From Thermoplasmatota archaeon (GTDB lineage: Archaea > Thermoplasmatota > Thermoplasmata > Thermoplasmatales > Thermoplasmataceae): a stretch of 45,799 nt of DNA. Numbering within the stretch: position 1 is the stretch's first letter; every line of letters begins with the position of its first letter. The translations under genes were made by a program, and so were the position numbers. The notes beneath the pieces were generated by a model. It was not told the DNA's origin, searched no databases, and saw only the letters and a program-made list of their open reading frames with translations. The stretch lies in the NCBI GenBank assembly GCA_023379845.1, contig JAMCPG010000042.1, positions 83,203 through 129,001 on the forward strand. The letters run 5' to 3'. Of the stretch, positions 25,960 through 35,281 are shown one piece after another.

Positions 25960-27093
25960 TCATTTCTGCAAGAGAAAGATATATTCATGCTTGAAGACAT
26001 AATATCCACCTGCAAGGGCGCGATATCTCCATAGCTCCTTCTGGTTCCTTTTTCCTCTCGTATCCTCAAAATTCTTGACTATTATGCTTTTAAGTGTGAA
26101 CCCGCATTCCATAAGCCTTTGCATAGAATAGAAACCAACAGGTATCCACGATCCTGATGCGTACTTATCCCCTATCACAATGACCAAATGCCCTCCCTCA
26201 GCCAAAATATGGTAACACTTTTTCCCTATTATCGACATGCGATCCAGAAAGATTTCCAGGCTGGCAGAATTTGAAAGATCTCTTTCATCGCTGCTGAAAT
26301 GTATAATGTCAAAATATGGTGGATGCAACAATATCAACTTTGGCGCAGGAGCCCCAATGCCTGCGAAGATTTTATTAAAATCGGCGACCAGGCTGTCTGC
26401 ATTAATCATGATGGCCCTTGACCTGGAGTTATTCTTAAGCTCATCCAGTGCTCCCGTGACCCTCGCAGTCGTTTCAGCGTTAAGTTCGATTCCAACTGAA
26501 TTTCTCCCCAGGTTTGAAGCTTCGAAGAGCGTTGTTCCACTGCCGGCGAATGGATCAAATACCCAGTCATTCTTCCTGGTGAATCTGAGCATGAACTGCC
26601 TCGGTATCTGTGGAACAAAATTCCCCCAGTACCAAGCTGAGTTTCCCTGGGAACTTTCTCGCCTGTCTAAATGCCAGTAGCTGTCGGTAATGATATCCTT
26701 GTAAATTTTCCACTGATTCAGATTCAGGTCATTGGTCCCGTTGCTCTTATGATTGATAAGTGATCTTGAGAGCCTTTTCAGGTAGTAATTCATGCGTTCT
26801 TCGGTGTATGATGACATTGCCTGATCCAGTTCATCAAGCAGATATGAAAGGGAAACCATATTTCCCTGGTCCGCTGGTGCATCGTCAGTTGAAGGCGGCA
26901 ATTGAAGGGATAAAAGCTCCACCTTGAGATTCTTTAATCCGGTTAATTTAGCCTCTTTACCGCTTAATTCGGCAATATGATCAACCGATCTCACAAGTCT
27001 ATCTTCAACGGGAACCTTGAAATCATCTTTCTTGTAGTGATTTCCCGGATATTTGTGGCCCTGTAGAGATTTTTTTCCTGCCCCTTTTTCCAT
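25960..27093 (-). CDS. DNA methyltransferase (N6-adenine/N4-cytosine type), apparently orphan
   Basis: A SAM-dependent amino-methyltransferase. Motif I is DPFAGSGTTLFEASNLGRN, about residues 180-198 from this start, with VGIELN following; the catalytic motif is LLHPPYFD (about 255-262), in which the usual D/N/S before PPY is histidine. Motif I precedes PPY, the alpha/gamma rather than beta order. The N-terminal 130 residues are probably for target recognition or assembly. No restriction endonuclease is adjacent. The chosen start (MEKGAGKKS) has a TATA-like CTTAAAT about 31 bases upstream; an ATG 16 codons earlier exists at 27141 but lies upstream of that box. Function could be genome marking, part of a defence system, or RNA methylation; the last is less likely. 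Confidence 0.83.
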   Translation of the reverse strand: MEKGAGKKSLQGHKYPGNHYKKDDFKVPVEDRLVRSVDHIAELSGKEAKLTGLKNLKVELLSLQLPPSTDDAPADQGNMVSLSYLLDELDQAMSSYTEERMNYYLKRLSRSLINHKSNGTNDLNLNQWKIYKDIITDSYWHLDRRESSQGNSAWYWGNFVPQIPRQFMLRFTRKNDWVFDPFAGSGTTLFEASNLGRNSVGIELNAETTARVTGALDELKNNSRSRAIMINADSLVADFNKIFAGIGAPAPKLILLHPPYFDIIHFSSDERDLSNSASLEIFLDRMSIIGKKCYHILAEGGHLVIVIGDKYASGSWIPVGFYSMQRLMECGFTLKSIIVKNFEDTRGKRNQKELWRYRALAGGYYVFKHEYIFLLQK

Positions 27094-27118
27094 TTTATGG
27101 CGCCATAAGGACAAGGCA

Positions 27119-27128
27119 GGATTTAAGA
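27119..27128. promoter_or_regulatory. Two-way TATA-like box between methyltransferase and APH-fold kinase
   Basis: GGATTTAAGA reads as TTTAAG on one strand and CTTAAA on the other. It is about 31 bases from the methyltransferase ATG at 27093 and about 36 bases from the kinase ATG at 27161, so one box could serve both divergent genes. The longer forms of both genes would start on the same CATG at 27139-27142. Confidence 0.35.
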
Positions 27129-27160
27129 TTGTCAACCGCATGCTTTACTTGAAGCTTCCA

Positions 27161-28021
27161 ATGGAAAATGAACTGATCGCATCCGATATTCTGGACGCTA
27201 TAAAGAGGTCATTTCCGGAGTTGAGAATATCGAAGATTGTTATAAATAACAGGGGATGGGACAATATCATAGCGATTGTAAACGACGATGTAGTATTCAG
27301 GTTCCCCAAAAATACGTCATCTGAAAAGAGAATGAAAATGGAGATAAAACTGATTGGAATGCTGACAGGATTTCCCGTTCGTCTTCCAGAATACACATTT
27401 CTTGCCGAAACCGGTAGATTTTTCGCCGGATATCCTTTCATTCCCGGGGTTCCATTAAGCTCTTCCTCCACACTCGGGAAAGGTATTTTGAGCGATATTA
27501 CCAAGATCCTTAGATATATGAGGGAATTTCCATTAAGCAAATGCAGGCTGGCAGGTTTACCCATTCATGACAACATTTCCTGGCTTACTAAACAGGAGGA
27601 AATACTCGGCAGATTCGAGCAAACTCTCTCTATTTTGACGGGACCTGGGTATTTTTCTGAACTGAGGAAAGAACTTATTGAGGCTTTATCCGGAATGAGT
27701 AAGGATTGCCTAACTCTTTGTCATGGAGACCTGTACAGGGGAAATGTGTTGATCTCAGGGAGACATGACAGGATAATTGGTGTGATAGACTGGGGTGATG
27801 CATTCTATGGTGACTACGCTTTTGACATCGCGGCAGTGGCACTCGATTTTCCCTCCAGACATATGAAGGAGATCTTATCGAAACTCTCTCCAGAAGGTGA
27901 CAAAACAGCTCTGGAGAGAATATTTTACTACTCAAAGGTTGAACCCCTTTATCTCGCAGATAACCTGATGAGAAAGGGACATAAGGAAGAAGCCAGCAAA
28001 GTGCTTGAAGAGATTATGTAA
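27161..28021 (+). CDS. Aminoglycoside/choline phosphotransferase (APH) family kinase
   Basis: A 286-residue protein-kinase-like fold enzyme. Near the N-terminus it has RGWDNIIAIVNDDVVFRFPK with the ATP-site lysine; the catalytic loop is LCHGDLYRGNVLIS and the metal-binding segment GVIDWGDAFYGDYAFDIA, the classic APH pair. Such enzymes phosphorylate small alcohols (aminoglycosides, homoserine, choline, macrolides, fructosamine); an archaeal substrate is unknown. The start is uncertain: ATG at 27140 gives seven more residues. It reads into the vWA gene, whose longest possible frame overlaps its end by 17 bases, but the vWA gene more likely has its own promoter. Its closeness to the vWA/PP2C/kinase triad may be functional or chance. 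Confidence 0.83.
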   Translation: MENELIASDILDAIKRSFPELRISKIVINNRGWDNIIAIVNDDVVFRFPKNTSSEKRMKMEIKLIGMLTGFPVRLPEYTFLAETGRFFAGYPFIPGVPLSSSSTLGKGILSDITKILRYMREFPLSKCRLAGLPIHDNISWLTKQEEILGRFEQTLSILTGPGYFSELRKELIEALSGMSKDCLTLCHGDLYRGNVLISGRHDRIIGVIDWGDAFYGDYAFDIAAVALDFPSRHMKEILSKLSPEGDKTALERIFYYSKVEPLYLADNLMRKGHKEEASKVLEEIM

Positions 28022-28115
28022 AACAGTCCTAATGGCTTGCAGCGGAGCGAAGAAAATAGATAATTCTATGATGCAGATCAGAAATATTTATAACTTGTAT
28101 CATGCTTTAGCCCTT

Positions 28116-28955
28116 ATGGTATACGAAGCAGAAATCAGCCGCACAAACCCGTCCTTGATATTGTTCCTCATCGATCAGTCAAGATCAATGAGTCACAAGT
28201 TGCCCGGTGGAGAGAGGTCCAAGGCACAGGAAGCCTCGGATGCAATCAACAGGCAAATCGGTGACTTTGTCCTGAGATGCACAAAGAGTGATGGAATTCG
28301 TGATTATTTCTATCTCGGCGTAATTGGCTATGGTTACGTTACGGGAAAGGCAGGATCCATTCTCAAAGGGGATCTTATACACCCAATTTCAGAACTCGCT
28401 GGAACACCTCTCAGGACGGAAAAGAGGAAGATGAAGGTATCAGACGGATCCGGTGGAGACATAGAAGTCGATTATGATTTTGGAGTGTGGTTTGATCCGG
28501 TTGCAAACGGCGACACGCCAATGTGCAAGGCGTTAGCGATTGCCAGGGATACCATAAAGGACTGGGTAGAAGAGCACCCATCGTCCTATCCACCGATCCT
28601 GATCAACATTACCGATGGACAGGCAACCGACGGAAACCCTGAGGACATAATAAAGGAGATCCAGGAGCTTAGGACCTCAGATGGCGATACGCTGATTTGG
28701 AATTGCCACTTATCTTCAAACCCTTCCACACCGGTTTCATTCCCTTCCGAGGAGTCGGATCTGCCTAACGACAAATATGCAATATCGCTGTTCGGCGTAT
28801 CTAGCGTGCTACCATCACAATATGTGGGATACGCAAGGGAAATGCAGATAGATCTTAAGGACAATGCCAGGGCTTACGTCTTCAATGCCCAGCTAGAGCA
28901 ACTGGTCGAATTCATCGATATTGGAACAAGGGGTCCCCAGGGGCAGATGCAATAA
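28116..28955 (+). CDS. TerY-like von Willebrand factor A domain protein
   Basis: A 279-residue cytoplasmic vWA protein. The metal-ion-dependent adhesion site is complete: DQSRS near residues 20-24 (DxSxS), the threonine in NGDTPMCKALAIA, and the aspartate in NITDGQATDG. This single-domain form, with the DTPM motif after the central strands, is typical of TerY proteins. The start at 28116 is supported by a TATA-like ATATTTATAAC about 28 bases upstream. It abuts the PP2C phosphatase gene directly (stop TAA followed by TTG), so the two are in one transcript. With the kinase at 29674-31281 they match the TerY-P triad, a predicted phosphorylation-based signalling unit in which the vWA protein probably gathers a metal-dependent complex. 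Confidence 0.87.
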   Translation: MVYEAEISRTNPSLILFLIDQSRSMSHKLPGGERSKAQEASDAINRQIGDFVLRCTKSDGIRDYFYLGVIGYGYVTGKAGSILKGDLIHPISELAGTPLRTEKRKMKVSDGSGGDIEVDYDFGVWFDPVANGDTPMCKALAIARDTIKDWVEEHPSSYPPILINITDGQATDGNPEDIIKEIQELRTSDGDTLIWNCHLSSNPSTPVSFPSEESDLPNDKYAISLFGVSSVLPSQYVGYAREMQIDLKDNARAYVFNAQLEQLVEFIDIGTRGPQGQMQ

Positions 28956-29690
28956 TTGCTTTCGGTAAGAGAGTTCCACCGCCCCAAGTCCGGGTATCGG
29001 GAATCTGAGTACGAGGATGCCTTCTCACTGGACGCAGAGGGTGGGAAATTCGCAGTAGCTGATGGTGCGACGGAGTCCAGTTTCTCCAATGTATGGGCTA
29101 AAGCACTGGTATCGACCTTTGTCGAAAACCCTCCCCCTATGGACATGAACGACAGGCAGTCGGTCAAGAACCTTTTGGACGAGGCAAGAAAAAAATGGTA
29201 CGGTGAGATAGACTGGACCTCGCTTCCATGGTTCCAGAAGAACAAGGCAGTACTTGGATCATACTCAACTTTTCTTGGGCTTCAGGTGGACTCGCCTGAG
29301 AGCCCAAAGCGCTACAGGTGCATCACGATAGGAGATTCTTGCCTTTTCCATCTTTCTGGCCCGAAAATGGAGTCTTTCCCCTACTCTGATTACAGGGATC
29401 TTAATTACACACCAAGGCTGATGTGGAGCGGCCATGGGTACCCGATTGGTCTTAGTAAGGAGGTTGAACCGCCCGGACTCGAAGTCAAGTATGGGAAGAT
29501 AAAGGAAGGTGACACTCTTATACTGGCGACAGATGCAATCTCCAAGTGGATGCTTCAGAACAAGGCAAGCCGGCCCTGGCAACAAGTTCTGGACAACGCC
29601 GACAACTGGGACTCATACATAGGCGGGCTTATTTCCAGCGGCGCAATGAAGAATGATGATATCACCATTATTTTCATCTCTGTATCTTAG
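28956..29690 (+). CDS. PP2C-family protein phosphatase
   Basis: A 244-residue metal-dependent Ser/Thr phosphatase. Visible motifs in order: ESEYEDAFSLD (acidic metal ligand), FAVADGATESSFSN (the DG ligand motif), LILATDAISKWM (D ligand in the TDG-like motif), and MKNDDITIIFI (final D ligand). It should reverse the action of the neighbouring kinase. The start is TTG immediately after the vWA stop, implying tight coupling; no ATG is available nearby. Its 3' end overlaps the convergent kinase gene by 17 bases, so the triad is tightly packed. Activity is inferred from the retained ligands. Confidence 0.86.
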   Translation: MLSVREFHRPKSGYRESEYEDAFSLDAEGGKFAVADGATESSFSNVWAKALVSTFVENPPPMDMNDRQSVKNLLDEARKKWYGEIDWTSLPWFQKNKAVLGSYSTFLGLQVDSPESPKRYRCITIGDSCLFHLSGPKMESFPYSDYRDLNYTPRLMWSGHGYPIGLSKEVEPPGLEVKYGKIKEGDTLILATDAISKWMLQNKASRPWQQVLDNADNWDSYIGGLISSGAMKNDDITIIFISVS

Positions 29691-31281
29691 CAAGTTCATC
29701 AGGGTCTATGCCATCCCAGAGAGGATCGTTTTTCAGGGCTTCAATGAGTAACTTCGTAAGCTTTCTTATTCTCCCCCTCTTTGATAGAAGCTCATTTATA
29801 AGCGGAGATTTATCAGGTGTCAGGAAATCAGTTTTCCTGAATAACAGGCAATCCTGGTCACCCCTGTTGTATCTGGTCCACAGGCTGGGATCCGATGCAA
29901 CTGCCAGCAAGGACAGATAAGTGACAAGGACAGAGAAATTATCCAATCGCTCATTATAAGTGGAGGTGGTTCTCTGAGGATGCTGGAAATGGTCGTGCCC
30001 ATTCTCCGGTGCCTTCATACCATTCAGGCTTGGCACATACATCCCATCATAGTCGACTAGCGTGATCCCATCAGAAGAATTCACCATGACATTGTCGCCG
30101 GATATGTCTCCATGAGCTATTCCGAATGTTCTGAGTCTGACTGCAACCGAGAGGAATTTTTTCGCAATATCGGATATTTTTCTAGTCGTTTCAAGATTAT
30201 TTGCAATATAAGTGTTAAGGTTGACACCATCTATCCATTCCATCAATAAAGCGGGGAAGTAGACGGCAGGATTCTTGAGTGTCCTCAAGGTCTTCGGAAG
30301 GTAACTGAAAGTAGCAAACGTAGATCCGTCGTTGAATCTGGAAATGGCCTTTGAAATAAGGTAATAACGCTTGCTGAGATCGGGCTTACTGCGAGTAAAA
30401 CATTTCAAGGCATGTGCGGATTGGCCATTTTCAAGCTTGAAAACAGTTCCGTAGTTGCCCGATGAGTACACCACGTTGCCGGGCATATTGACGTATGGAT
30501 TGGGGACGACCCTGGAAGAAAGTATTTCCACCCGGTCTTTCGAAATGCTGAACTCAAGATTCTGCATGGCCCTGGAATAGTCGCTCTGGCTCGGCCATGA
30601 AACATTCTGGGGTATGGAGTCAAGATCCGGAGGGACCTCGTCTATGATTGTCCTGGGATCCGGTGCAGCTGGTGCAGTTTCCACCGGCATTTGCTGTTGT
30701 GGCTGAGCATCAGGCATGGGGGTCTCTTCCTTCTTTGGCTCTTTCAAGTCATTTTGTGCGCTTGTCTCCTTGGGCTGTTCATGCTTTGGTGACGGCCTTA
30801 TGAAGGTTGCCACCACGAAGAGGAAGAAAGCGAAGAATACTACATCATAGATTGGAAGCAGGTATGCTATGAAAAGAGATGCGAGGACCGGTGCAAGGAA
30901 GAGGAATCGCCTGGGCGAGGATCTGAAATAATACAGGAATAGCCCTGTTGATAACGCCAGAACCGCAATGAGAAGTGCCATGGTATCATTGAAATCAAGA
31001 GGATTATCCAGCAGGGACATCGGCAGGAGTATTGCTATCGCTAGCAGGGAATAACTGCCGGATTCCCAGTTTATCATTCTCCTGGACCGTATGATGGCTA
31101 AGATGACCAGGAAAATGGCTGCAACAACAATTATATGATATGTCTCATATGCGCTGAATACGGATGCAAGGTGCAGTCCCTTCTCAACATAAGCCCATGA
31201 ACTGTAAATGAACTGCAGCGGCACGACTGCAATGAAGAGGATTACGAATATGAGTGCCAAGACCTTGTTTATATATTTCAT
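29674..31281 (-). CDS. Membrane-anchored Ser/Thr protein kinase of the TerY-P type
   Basis: A 535-residue protein. Residues 1-162 contain five or six membrane helices; 163-215 is a Lys/Glu- and Pro/Gln-rich linker; about 255-520 is a kinase fold. Kinase residues: glycine loop SSGNYGTVF (273-281), lysine in ALKCF (K293), catalytic loop HGDISGDNVMV (390-400, with D392 and N397), and metal-binding DYD (410-412) in place of DFG. The HGD form is shared with RIO- and LPS-kinase-like proteins. Known triad kinases usually carry soluble accessory domains; here the partner is a membrane module, suggesting sensing at the cell surface. It is convergent with the vWA-PP2C pair rather than in the same operon. 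Confidence 0.84.
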   Translation of the reverse strand: MKYINKVLALIFVILFIAVVPLQFIYSSWAYVEKGLHLASVFSAYETYHIIVVAAIFLVILAIIRSRRMINWESGSYSLLAIAILLPMSLLDNPLDFNDTMALLIAVLALSTGLFLYYFRSSPRRFLFLAPVLASLFIAYLLPIYDVVFFAFFLFVVATFIRPSPKHEQPKETSAQNDLKEPKKEETPMPDAQPQQQMPVETAPAAPDPRTIIDEVPPDLDSIPQNVSWPSQSDYSRAMQNLEFSISKDRVEILSSRVVPNPYVNMPGNVVYSSGNYGTVFKLENGQSAHALKCFTRSKPDLSKRYYLISKAISRFNDGSTFATFSYLPKTLRTLKNPAVYFPALLMEWIDGVNLNTYIANNLETTRKISDIAKKFLSVAVRLRTFGIAHGDISGDNVMVNSSDGITLVDYDGMYVPSLNGMKAPENGHDHFQHPQRTTSTYNERLDNFSVLVTYLSLLAVASDPSLWTRYNRGDQDCLLFRKTDFLTPDKSPLINELLSKRGRIRKLTKLLIEALKNDPLWDGIDPDELAKIQR

Positions 31282-32370: not shown

Positions 32371-33621
32371 ATGCAATTCAAGACTTCATTCAACATACCC
32401 GCTTCGCTCTGCATCAAGTGCAGATCTGCCAAGAATCTCTGCGGTCTCTCATACTGTCCTATACTTGTCAGCACGATGGTAAAACCAAAATTTGAGAGGC
32501 AGATCAGGAATGAGGTATCCGGTTCATCCCCGCCATCCGTGTTTGTAGGCAGGTTTGGTTATCCAAAGATCAAGGTTTATCCTTCGACGCCTCCGGAATT
32601 CGGTGAGACGGGAAGTTATGAAACACCTTCTGAATGGATGAAAATGGACATGGAAAAATTTCTCTCTATGCGCCTTTCGATGCTTAGGGGTGGAATGGAG
32701 ATTTCAGTGAAGAATGCATCCACTCCGGACAGCAAGCTTCTAGACACACAGCTTCTCTCCATGGCAAGCAAGCCCGTCGATATGGAGATGATTTTCAGCA
32801 AGAGCATGCTTTCATCCAAAATTGTGCTTTCTGAATACACTCCACCAATGGGACCGGCGGCCCCGCTTAAAAACATATCTTATGGGAACGTGAAAATAGA
32901 GCCATACGTTGAGAGGGCTTTCAATGACACCGATCTGCGTGCTGTCAGGGCCATATACGATCTGTACAATAGAGGGGTAGACGTCTCCCGCCTTTCGAAA
33001 ATACTCAGCACCGGTGCATTCGGGGTGAAGGAAGACCGCAGGGCAGTTCCTACGAGATGGTCTATAACTGCGGTTGACAAGAACGTTTCAGATCTGAACC
33101 TGAAAACGCTCAAGGGCATGGAGACAGTCGACAAGTTCGAGGTCTTTGTGCGAAAAACAGGCGGCAATCTCTTCATGGGTATAATGGCGCCGGGAAACTG
33201 GCAGTTTGAATGGGGGGAAGCATGGTTTCCAGGCAGCACGTGGAATACATGGGGATCTGAAGCCGAGGTCGAGATCGATTATGAGGGTTTCAATGGAAGA
33301 AAGGATTATCCCGGTATCGGTGGCTGTTACTATGCATCAAGACTGGCCGCTACAGAATATATGCTGAAGAGAAAGCGGATGGCAATTCCGCTCTTGTGGA
33401 GAGAGATTTATCCTGGATTCAATCTCCCGGTCGGCGTCTGGTATGTGAGGGAGAACCTGAGGGAAATGTTCAACACCAGGCCGGTGCAGCTAGACGACAT
33501 TGAGAGTTGCATTCTCTACCTGAAGACACAGATGAAGATACCGGTGGAAAAGTGGCTCTCAAGATCCACGATATACAGATACCTGAAAGCAGGATCGCTT
33601 GACAGGTATATTGCTGCGTGA
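32371..33621 (+). CDS. Archaeal Nre-family DNA repair protein
   Basis: A 416-residue protein with the N-terminal zinc-finger-like cluster C14-x2-C17-x6-C24-x4-C29 (CIKCRSAKNLCGLSYC), followed by SSPPSVFVGRFGYPKI and GPAAPLKN, hallmarks of archaeal Nre proteins. Nre proteins (NreA and NreB in haloarchaea) protect against DNA damage and some bind PCNA through a C-terminal PIP-box; a clear PIP-box is not seen here, the end being YLKAGSLDRYIAA. The gene overlaps the radical SAM gene by four bases and precedes PCNA, so the context is DNA repair. Direct biochemical activity of the family is not known to me. Confidence 0.88.
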   Translation: MQFKTSFNIPASLCIKCRSAKNLCGLSYCPILVSTMVKPKFERQIRNEVSGSSPPSVFVGRFGYPKIKVYPSTPPEFGETGSYETPSEWMKMDMEKFLSMRLSMLRGGMEISVKNASTPDSKLLDTQLLSMASKPVDMEMIFSKSMLSSKIVLSEYTPPMGPAAPLKNISYGNVKIEPYVERAFNDTDLRAVRAIYDLYNRGVDVSRLSKILSTGAFGVKEDRRAVPTRWSITAVDKNVSDLNLKTLKGMETVDKFEVFVRKTGGNLFMGIMAPGNWQFEWGEAWFPGSTWNTWGSEAEVEIDYEGFNGRKDYPGIGGCYYASRLAATEYMLKRKRMAIPLLWREIYPGFNLPVGVWYVRENLREMFNTRPVQLDDIESCILYLKTQMKIPVEKWLSRSTIYRYLKAGSLDRYIAA

Positions 33622-34463
33622 AGTATATGCAGGTGCTTGAAGTAAAGGCAAAGTCGGCCCTTAACAGATCTGGAATGGTGGAACTCGATTACGCTTTCAA
33701 TGCATATCTTGGCTGCGCTCATGGTTGCAGGTACTGCTATGCTGCAGATATTACTCCGGGAGAATCCGCAGAGACCTGGGGCGAGACAGTAAGGGTCAGG
33801 GTGAACATAATCGAACTTCTGCAGAGAGAGATAAAGAGCATGAGAAGAGGTCTCGTAGGTATTTCAACCATTACGGATCCGTACCAGCCAATAGAGGCAA
33901 AATACAGGCTCTCCAGGCAGGCAATTTCACTGCTGCTGGCAAACGGGTTCAGGGTCTCAATTCAGACGAAGTCTCCCCTTGTGCTTAGGGATCTCGACAT
34001 ACTTCGTGAAAGGAAAAGACTTGATGCAGGCGTCAGTTTGGCTACGCCGGACAGCCAAATATCCCGACTCATAGATAGGAAATCCCCCCTTCCGGAGGCC
34101 AGGATAAGGACAATGCGCGAACTCACGCGTAACTCTGTCAAGACATGGATGTTTATGGGGCCAATCATTCCAGGCATCAATGATTCCGGCGATTCGATAG
34201 AAGCCCTTATTTCTCTGGCTGCGGAGCTGAAGATCAGGGTTATCTATGATCTCCTCAATCCTTACAGTGGTGCGAAATCTATGTTAGGGGACAGCCTGGG
34301 TCCAGGCTGGCTTTCATCAATGATGGGGCTTGACAGGCGGAAGTGGTGGGAAAAAGTTGAGTCAACCATCCTTAGGGTCGCAAGGGAATACAACGTCAAA
34401 TGCAACAGCGAAGCCTCCGAGCTCAGCGCCGAGACTGGCCTTCTTTACAAGCAGCTTTTCTGA
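33618..34463 (+). CDS. Radical SAM protein, spore photoproduct lyase (SplB)-like
   Basis: A 281-residue radical SAM enzyme with the cluster motif C33-x3-C37-x2-C40 (GCAHGCRYCYAAD). The following ITDPYQPIEAKYRLSRQ is the family sequence of the SPL-like group often annotated DNA repair photolyase or Rv2578c-like. Such proteins may reverse or process a DNA lesion, but true spore photoproduct activity has not been established for archaeal members. The start is GTG at 33618, four bases inside the Nre gene; ATG at 33627 is an alternative losing three residues. The overlap with Nre and the PCNA gene 86 bases downstream strongly suggest a linked role in DNA maintenance. Confidence 0.86.
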   Translation: MKYMQVLEVKAKSALNRSGMVELDYAFNAYLGCAHGCRYCYAADITPGESAETWGETVRVRVNIIELLQREIKSMRRGLVGISTITDPYQPIEAKYRLSRQAISLLLANGFRVSIQTKSPLVLRDLDILRERKRLDAGVSLATPDSQISRLIDRKSPLPEARIRTMRELTRNSVKTWMFMGPIIPGINDSGDSIEALISLAAELKIRVIYDLLNPYSGAKSMLGDSLGPGWLSSMMGLDRRKWWEKVESTILRVAREYNVKCNSEASELSAETGLLYKQLF

Positions 34464-34549: not shown

Positions 34550-35281
34550 ATGACAGCACTCAATATTTCAGTTAAAAACCTGCGAGAACTGGCAGATCTA
34601 ATCAATACGGTTGTGGGAGAGGCGAAATTTAAATTCGACAAGGCGGGCATGCTTGTAAGGGTAGTCGATCCGGCACATGTCGCCATGATAAATGCAGAGG
34701 TTCCCAGAGAGGCATTCGTGGAGTATCAGATCGATTCCGACGAGGAGATTGCACTGGACCTTGAGAAACTCAAGAATGTTCTAAAACTCGCCGGTTCCAA
34801 CGACAATGTTTTCGTGCGCAAGACAAACGACAAGCTCAAATTTGAGCTTGGCACGGTGAGCAAGAGCATAACTCTTCTTGACAACAGCATCGTAACTGTG
34901 CCAAAGATACCGCAGATATCCTCCGAATCATTCCTTGTTATCAGCAGAGGGGATTTCGAACGTGGCCTGAAGGCGGCCGAAGACGTATCGGATGCAATTA
35001 AATTCACCCTTTCCCCAGAAGAGTTCACTGCGAGATCCGCCTCGGATTCCGAGGATTCTGAGATGACAATCCCAAAGGACATGCTCAAGGAGATTAAGTG
35101 CAGCGGCACAATAAAGAGCCTCTATCCGCTCGAATATCTCCTGAAATTCGTCAAGTCGATACCATCCTCCGAAACACTCAAACTCAGCTTCAAGGACGAT
35201 TATCCTCTAACGATAGAATTCAACTTTGGCGGTTCGGGACTCATGAAGGGGCTCTTCCTTCTCGCTCCTAGAACAGAATGA
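34550..35281 (+). CDS. pcn: DNA polymerase sliding clamp (PCNA)
   Basis: A 243-residue PCNA, the trimeric ring that tethers polymerases and repair enzymes to DNA. Recognisable segments include the opening helix with NLRELADLINTVVGEAKFKF, the family's DPAHVAMINAEVP, LDLEKLKNVLKLAGSND, the interdomain region, and the C-terminal YPLTIEFNFGGSGLMKGLFLLAPR (split here as DYPLTIEFNF and LLAPRTE). Length is normal. Upstream AGGTG may serve as a weak ribosome binding site about ten bases before the ATG, and a TATA-like AATTATTAATC is about 50 bases upstream, suggesting a short leader. Confidence 0.96.
   Translation: MTALNISVKNLRELADLINTVVGEAKFKFDKAGMLVRVVDPAHVAMINAEVPREAFVEYQIDSDEEIALDLEKLKNVLKLAGSNDNVFVRKTNDKLKFELGTVSKSITLLDNSIVTVPKIPQISSESFLVISRGDFERGLKAAEDVSDAIKFTLSPEEFTARSASDSEDSEMTIPKDMLKEIKCSGTIKSLYPLEYLLKFVKSIPSSETLKLSFKDDYPLTIEFNFGGSGLMKGLFLLAPRTE

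What the first reader, a model, noticed from the sequence alone, without database searches (positions are those of the whole stretch)
25960..31281. TerY-P-like phosphosignalling triad with a membrane-embedded kinase, beside a DNA methyltransferase and an APH kinase
Three tightly packed genes encode a TerY-like vWA protein with full MIDAS (DxSxS, T, D), a PP2C phosphatase with all metal ligands, and a kinase with K293, HGD-N and DYD residues. This set is the TerY-P triad known from comparative genomics of tellurite-resistance and stress systems. Here the kinase has five or six membrane helices and a Pro/Gln-rich linker before the kinase domain, the three genes are arranged convergently with a 17-base overlap, and a methyltransferase and an APH-family kinase sit directly upstream. 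A membrane-sensing form in an acidophilic archaeon, possibly tied to DNA modification or defence, would be new to me. The functional link to the methyltransferase is inference from neighbourhood only.
Basis: partly seen in the sequence, partly recalled or inferred. Interest (0 to 1): 0.78.

Follow-up and report, generated by a model that had tools for sequence, protein, structure and literature searches.

The report
Archaeal TerY-P triad, membrane-bound kinase variant
An acid-loving archaeon carries a conserved three-gene kinase/phosphatase/metal-binding-adaptor module of a type known from bacteria, here with the kinase built into the membrane; across its relatives the module is kept intact while the kinase's front-end sensor differs between lineages, and the neighbouring DNA methyltransferase is not part of it.

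Summary
A TerY-type vWA protein, a PP2C phosphatase and a protein kinase lie at 28116-31281, all with intact active sites, and the PP2C and kinase genes overlap tail to tail by 17 bases. Defence-system profiles name all three as TerY-P parts. The triad is all-or-none in Thermoplasmataceae (54 of 77 genomes) and is present in 7 of 8 Sysuiplasmatales. It is almost absent elsewhere in the phylum.

Three features depart from known TerY-P. (1) The kinase lacks the C-terminal OB fold or zinc ribbon and has an N-terminal input module instead. This module differs by clade: six membrane helices (window genus, a sister genus, Sysuiplasmatales), two helices (Thermoplasma), a PH domain, or an Ig-like domain. 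(2) The kinase gene is inverted. The convergent, mostly overlapping layout is kept in every archaeal family locus assessable, whereas bacterial homologues are co-directional. (3) No effector gene travels with it, and vWA, PP2C and the kinase domain are under strong purifying selection.

The methyltransferase link is not supported: it is a family-wide orphan gene found elsewhere in other genera. Best reading: a stably inherited archaeal receptor-kinase switch on the TerY-P core, a new variant of a known kind. Stimulus, target and role are untested.

The parts
28116..28955 (+). TerY-type vWA protein, 279 aa, MIDAS complete (ORF runs from TTG 28005; real start most likely ATG 28116)
   Evidence: PADLOC TerY PDLC02224 E=6e-91; MIDAS residues invariant in 53 archaeal and 6 bacterial homologues; start from tblastn boundaries and Ka/Ks
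28087..28093 (+). TATA-like box (tttataa) about 26 bases upstream of ATG 28116, consistent with a leaderless vWA-PP2C transcript
   Evidence: sequence read directly; inference, no transcript data
28956..29690 (+). PP2C phosphatase, 244 aa, TTG start directly after the vWA stop
   Evidence: PADLOC TerY-P PP2C PDLC02222 E=2e-27; Pfam PP2C_2 E=1e-4, below Pfam cut-off; metal ligands conserved
29674..29690 (.). 17-base tail-to-tail overlap of the PP2C and kinase genes
   Evidence: coordinates; gap between -23 and +12 in 50 of 51 loci, overlapping in 39
29674..31281 (-). membrane protein kinase, 535 aa
   Evidence: PADLOC STK_OB PDLC02223 E=3e-54 over profile 2-272 of 562 only; AlphaFold model pLDDT about 90 or more for most of residues 231-530, Foldseek top hits all protein kinases
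30787..31281 (-). kinase residues 1-165: six predicted membrane helices; positive-inside pattern places N- and C-terminus in the cytoplasm, leaving only one extracytoplasmic loop of about 20 residues
   Evidence: hydropathy; AlphaFold shows helices but with low confidence, pLDDT about 50; topology by inspection
30598..30786 (-). kinase residues 166-228: low-complexity Pro/Gln-rich linker, disordered in the model, fastest-evolving part of the triad
29677..30597 (-). kinase residues 229-535: catalytic domain (K293, HGD-N, DYDG), the part shared with other TerY-P kinases
27161..28021 (+). APH-family kinase; neighbour, not part of the system (found beside the triad only in this genus)
   Evidence: Pfam APH E=8.5e-19
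25960..27141 (-). N6/N4-type DNA methyltransferase; neighbour, not part of the system
   Evidence: Pfam N6_N4_Mtase E=7e-23, PADLOC MTase_II 402 bits; unlinked from the triad outside this genus

Best explanation
This is a TerY-P-type phosphorylation switch that Thermoplasmataceae and Sysuiplasmatales keep as a stable signalling module rather than as part of a defence island. The kinase senses something through its N-terminal module; in the window's clade that is a six-helix membrane domain with almost no extracytoplasmic part, so it more likely responds to the state of the membrane or a small lipophilic or ionic cue than to a bulky external ligand. The cytoplasmic kinase domain, on a flexible linker, phosphorylates the vWA protein and/or targets that the vWA protein recruits through its metal-dependent MIDAS site. 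The PP2C protein, apparently co-transcribed with the vWA protein, removes the phosphates and resets the switch. Because the kinase is transcribed from the opposite strand, its dose can be set apart from that of its antagonist and adaptor. Shown here: the three conserved active sites, their strict co-occurrence and layout, the strong purifying selection, and the lineage-specific N-terminal modules. Inferred: catalysis, who phosphorylates whom, the membrane stimulus, and the housekeeping role.
For: Family-specific profiles hit all three proteins. vWA and PP2C were found in the same 54 of 77 family genomes and strong kinase hits in 53 of those; in the 54th the kinase lies in an assembly gap. 7 of 8 Sysuiplasmatales genomes have the vWA, and six of the seven loci fetched show the same layout and a membrane-type kinase, the seventh being cut by the contig end. 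All catalytic residues are invariant among archaeal members apart from single outliers. Every archaeal family locus assessable is convergent; 50 of 51 have stop-to-stop gaps of -23 to +12 and 39 overlap, against 23% of other kinds of convergent pair in that range. Flanking genes are otherwise mostly genus-specific, with no fourth gene shared across the family. Ka/Ks against G072 is 0.016 for vWA, 0.046 for PP2C and 0.041 for the kinase domain, close to core neighbours. The kinase-domain tree recovers each N-terminal type as one group. The PH-type module is a PH fold (AlphaFold pLDDT 83; Foldseek to GRK2, SSRP1 and TFIIH p62 PH domains, E down to 6e-5). Published analogue: Sulfolobus ArnB, a vWA-family protein, switches complex state when phosphorylated by ArnC (PMC12852372).
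Against: No biochemical or expression data for any archaeal member were found. In bacteria the triad is a demonstrated anti-phage system (PMC10889362; PMC7699616, reporting Gao et al. 2020), and a self-contained three-gene unit is what that system looks like, so a defence role is not excluded. The membrane domain is predicted with low confidence and no fold.
Confidence: 0.62

Rival explanations
1. It is an archaeal anti-virus TerY-P system: the kinase (held at the membrane) detects infection and the triad blocks it by phosphorylating viral or host proteins.
For: Bacterial TerY-P protects against T7-like phages as a stand-alone three-gene system, with most cells surviving (PMC10889362; PMC7699616). 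All three proteins match PADLOC's TerY-P models.
Against: Retained with congruent neighbourhoods within genera, single-copy, Ka/Ks as low as core genes, no recognised defence genes among the neighbour clusters examined, and the OB domain characteristic of the PADLOC STK_OB kinase is missing (profile 2-272 of 562). Strain-level patchiness was not tested.
Confidence: 0.2
2. It is linked to DNA modification or repair: the switch controls the neighbouring methyltransferase, or the Nre/radical-SAM/PCNA genes on its other side.
For: MTase and APH adjoin the triad in most of the window's genus; Nre plus a radical-SAM gene lie near the triad in 13 loci of five genera, and PCNA follows in the window. 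Bacterial TerY-P is often linked to DNA-processing genes (PMC11090510, PMC4978471).
Against: The MTase relative sits elsewhere in other genera and even in congener G074. Nre/radical-SAM are absent near the triad in most genera and are inverted relative to it between clades, as expected of an old shared neighbourhood.
Confidence: 0.1
3. It is a metal or oxyanion stress switch (tellurite-type): the vWA MIDAS senses a metal and tunes the kinase/phosphatase balance.
For: The MIDAS is invariant; metal sensing is the original hypothesis for TerY-P (Anantharaman et al. 2012 as cited in PMC11090510); hosts live in metal-rich acid (general knowledge).
Against: No other ter genes recognised among the neighbour clusters examined; the part that varies between lineages is the kinase's N-terminus, pointing to sensing there rather than in the vWA protein.
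Confidence: 0.15

Closest known systems
TerY-P anti-phage system with kinase-OB fusion (PADLOC TerY / PP2C / STK_OB; Gao et al. 2020, known here through PMC7699616, PMC10889362 and PMC11090510)
   Same: All three proteins are homologous, and the three genes are adjacent and self-contained.
   Different: The archaeal kinase lacks the C-terminal OB domain, has an N-terminal input module, its gene is inverted, and the triad is stably inherited within genera.
TerY-P triad with kinase-zinc ribbon, inside Type II/III-A CoCoNuT restriction loci (PMC11090510)
   Same: Same three enzymes.
   Different: No zinc ribbon on the kinase, and no McrBC/helicase/HEPN system recognised as a shared neighbour of the archaeal triad.
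Planctomycetota, Campylobacteraceae and cyanobacterial vWA-PP2C-kinase loci (L042-L048, L122, L123)
   Same: Nearest bacterial homologues found (vWA 38-49% identical), same gene order.
   Different: Kinase gene co-directional; kinase domain at the protein's N-terminus with a C-terminal extension (OB-like, or one hydrophobic segment followed by repeat or WD40-like regions).
Sulfolobus ArnA/ArnB/ArnC phospho-switch (PMC12852372)
   Same: Works-like analogue: a vWA-family protein phosphorylated by a protein kinase in an archaeon.
   Different: Different protein families and partners; no homology tested or claimed.

Membership tests
TerY-P phosphorylation triad (broad sense) | TerY-family vWA protein | tested here: met
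   PADLOC TerY E=6e-91 over the full profile; MIDAS invariant
TerY-P phosphorylation triad (broad sense) | PP2C-type phosphatase with metal ligands | tested here: met
   PADLOC PP2C E=2e-27; aspartates conserved
TerY-P phosphorylation triad (broad sense) | Ser/Thr kinase of the TerY-P type with intact catalytic residues | tested here: met
   STK_OB kinase half E=3e-54; K293/HGD/DYD invariant in the archaeal set; kinase fold
TerY-P phosphorylation triad (broad sense) | Three genes adjacent and co-occurring | tested here: met
   all-or-none in 77 family genomes
TerY-P phosphorylation triad (broad sense) | Phosphorylation and its reversal between the three proteins | not testable with these tools
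   needs purified proteins
TerY-P anti-phage subtype (kinase-OB) | C-terminal OB fold on the kinase | tested here: not met
   match ends at profile position 272 of 562; the protein ends with the kinase domain
TerY-P anti-phage subtype (kinase-OB) | Anti-phage activity | not testable with these tools
   needs infection experiments
CoCoNuT-associated TerY-P (kinase-zinc ribbon) | C-terminal zinc ribbon on the kinase, with McrB/helicase genes nearby | tested here: not met
   no C-terminal extension and no such gene among the shared neighbour clusters read
Type II restriction-modification system | Methyltransferase with a cognate restriction endonuclease | tested here: not met
   immediate neighbours of the MTase are APH and a pro-kumamolisin-type protease, then an Fe-S protein

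The most novel reading that the evidence does not exclude
An archaeal receptor-kinase module with interchangeable front ends: an invariant vWA-PP2C-kinase core fitted in different lineages with a polytopic membrane domain, a two-helix membrane anchor, a PH domain or an Ig-like domain, turning a bacterial defence/stress triad into a core archaeal signal-transduction pathway.
Probability: 0.4. Interest if true: 0.7.

Novelty: new variant of a known kind. Interest (0 to 1): 0.52.

Why it matters
TerY-P has so far been discussed as a bacterial tellurite, phage-defence or restriction-linked triad. A stably inherited, family-wide archaeal version with strong purifying selection and lineage-specific sensors suggests that the core is a general phospho-switch that defence systems also use. 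Archaeal membrane receptor kinases with defined partners are scarce.

Tried and rejected
Link to the methyltransferase: rejected as unlinked outside the genus. APH as a fourth component: found beside the triad only in the genus. A hidden conserved effector: none, no neighbour cluster exceeds 13 of about 55 loci. The characterised T. volcanium PPM phosphatase (recalled from memory) as the triad's PP2C: probably not, because that genome has a second, more canonical PP2C at about 708 kb while the triad one is at about 570 kb; not proven. Missing kinase in G064: an assembly gap of Ns. Solved structures by sequence: nothing significant for vWA or PP2C, only generic kinases for the kinase. Pfam on the membrane domain: nothing significant. 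Papers: Anantharaman 2012 and Gao 2020 are not held and are cited through later papers.
Full report
What is there. The three core proteins are recognised only weakly by general libraries (vWA 2e-4, PP2C 1e-4, Pkinase 6e-5) but strongly by the profiles made for TerY-P: TerY 6e-91, PP2C 2e-27, STK_OB 3e-54. The STK_OB match covers only profile positions 2-272 of 562, so the OB half is missing. The vWA gene most likely starts at ATG 28116: alignments to relatives start there, the upstream codons evolve as non-coding (Ka/Ks 0.071 with them, 0.016 without), and a TATA-like box lies about 26 bases upstream.

Conservation. In 77 Thermoplasmataceae genomes (family named by inference from the titles of related contigs and from genome sizes) vWA and PP2C were found in the same 54, and strong kinase hits in 53 of those; the 54th has Ns where the kinase should be. 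In 390 genomes of the phylum only this family, one Sysuiplasmatales genome and one genome with two distant copies matched the vWA; 7 of 8 Sysuiplasmatales genomes do. The catalytic and metal-binding residues of all three proteins are invariant among archaeal members apart from single outliers.

Layout. In every archaeal family locus that could be assessed, vWA and PP2C run together and the kinase faces them. The two stop codons are -23 to +12 bases apart in 50 of 51 loci and the genes overlap in 39; the exception is a fragmented gene. Of 26 other kinds of convergent pair in the same stretches, 23% fall in that range and none was seen in more than six loci; this comparison is biased because the stretches were chosen for the triad. 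The six bacterial loci measured are co-directional, as are two cyanobacterial plasmid loci. The inversion therefore probably happened once at the base of the archaeal group and has been kept since; why is unknown.

The varying part. The kinase domain begins at a WPSxxxY-like motif. In bacteria this motif lies at the very N-terminus of the protein and an extension follows the kinase domain: OB-like in Calothrix; one hydrophobic segment plus repeats or WD40-like sequence in others (the OB and WD40 readings are by eye). In the archaea the protein ends with the kinase domain and an N-terminal module, mostly 110 to 300 residues, precedes it. Four types were seen: about four to six membrane helices (window genus, genus g8, Sysuiplasmatales); two helices (Thermoplasma-sized genomes); a PH domain, doubled in genus g11; and an Ig-like beta sandwich. 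The PH call rests on an AlphaFold model (pLDDT 83; seven strands and a C-terminal helix), Foldseek hits to GRK2, SSRP1 and TFIIH p62 PH domains and scattered Pfam PH hits. The Ig-like call rests only on weak filamin/GOLD hits and is provisional. On a tree made from the kinase domain alone, each type is one group: support 97/100 for PH, 100/100 for two-helix, 92/89 for multi-helix, 77/61 for Ig-like. Front ends have thus been replaced or remodelled at least twice on a constant core.

The window's own sensor. Residues 1-165 hold six hydrophobic segments. Positive residues cluster in the predicted inside loops (RSRR near residue 66, RSSPRR near residue 120) and after the last helix, placing both ends in the cytoplasm and leaving one external loop of about 20 residues. 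The model shows helices but at pLDDT near 50, so the arrangement is unknown. This part evolves about three times faster than the kinase domain (Ka/Ks 0.12 against 0.041), as expected of an input domain.

Neighbours. Clustering of all ORFs around about 55 loci found no gene other than the triad in more than 13. APH was found beside the triad only in the window's genus. The MTase has relatives in 64 of 77 genomes, elsewhere in the chromosome outside this genus and also in congener G074. Both diverge faster than vWA, PP2C and the kinase domain. MTase and triad are both missing in some genera, but that may be one event in one clade and is weak evidence.

Mechanism. Kinase and PP2C are enzymatic opposites, and vWA MIDAS proteins commonly act as metal-dependent adaptors (general knowledge). 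Sulfolobus ArnB shows that an archaeal vWA-family protein can switch its binding state on phosphorylation (PMC12852372). The simplest model is a sensor kinase acting on vWA or vWA-recruited targets, with PP2C as reset. Bacterial TerY-P protects against T7-like phages with most cells surviving (PMC10889362), so a defence role stays open, but steady inheritance and very low Ka/Ks fit core signalling better. None of the biochemistry was tested here.

Verdict. Real, a member of the TerY-P triad in the broad sense, not of its OB or zinc-ribbon subtypes; a new variant because of the inverted gene, the N-terminal sensors and the core-like conservation.

Noticed in passing
32371-34460 (with PCNA at 34550-35281): An Nre (archaeal DNA-repair-type) gene and a radical-SAM gene lie near the triad in 13 fetched loci of five genera, spanning the membrane-type and PH-type clades but in opposite orientation; PCNA follows in the window. 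Either an old shared neighbourhood or a link to DNA repair.
   Followed up: partly
25960-27141: Orphan N6/N4 methyltransferase, single-copy in most genomes, with relatives in 64 of 77 genomes of the family; no endonuclease partner beside it in the window. Possibly a regulatory or replication-linked methylase.
   Followed up: partly
G000:C7:16656-17192 (L120); L118: The window's genome and the T. volcanium-sized genome each have a second, more canonical PP2C outside the triad.
   Followed up: no
L124, L125 (genome G422, another family of the class): Two distant vWA-PP2C-kinase loci in one genome, one co-directional and one with a different gene arrangement.
   Followed up: no
L126, L131-L136 (Sysuiplasmatales): The triad of this separate order is closer to the window's genus (vWA 75-79% identity) than most of the window's own family is, suggesting transfer of the whole convergent unit between orders.
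   Followed up: partly
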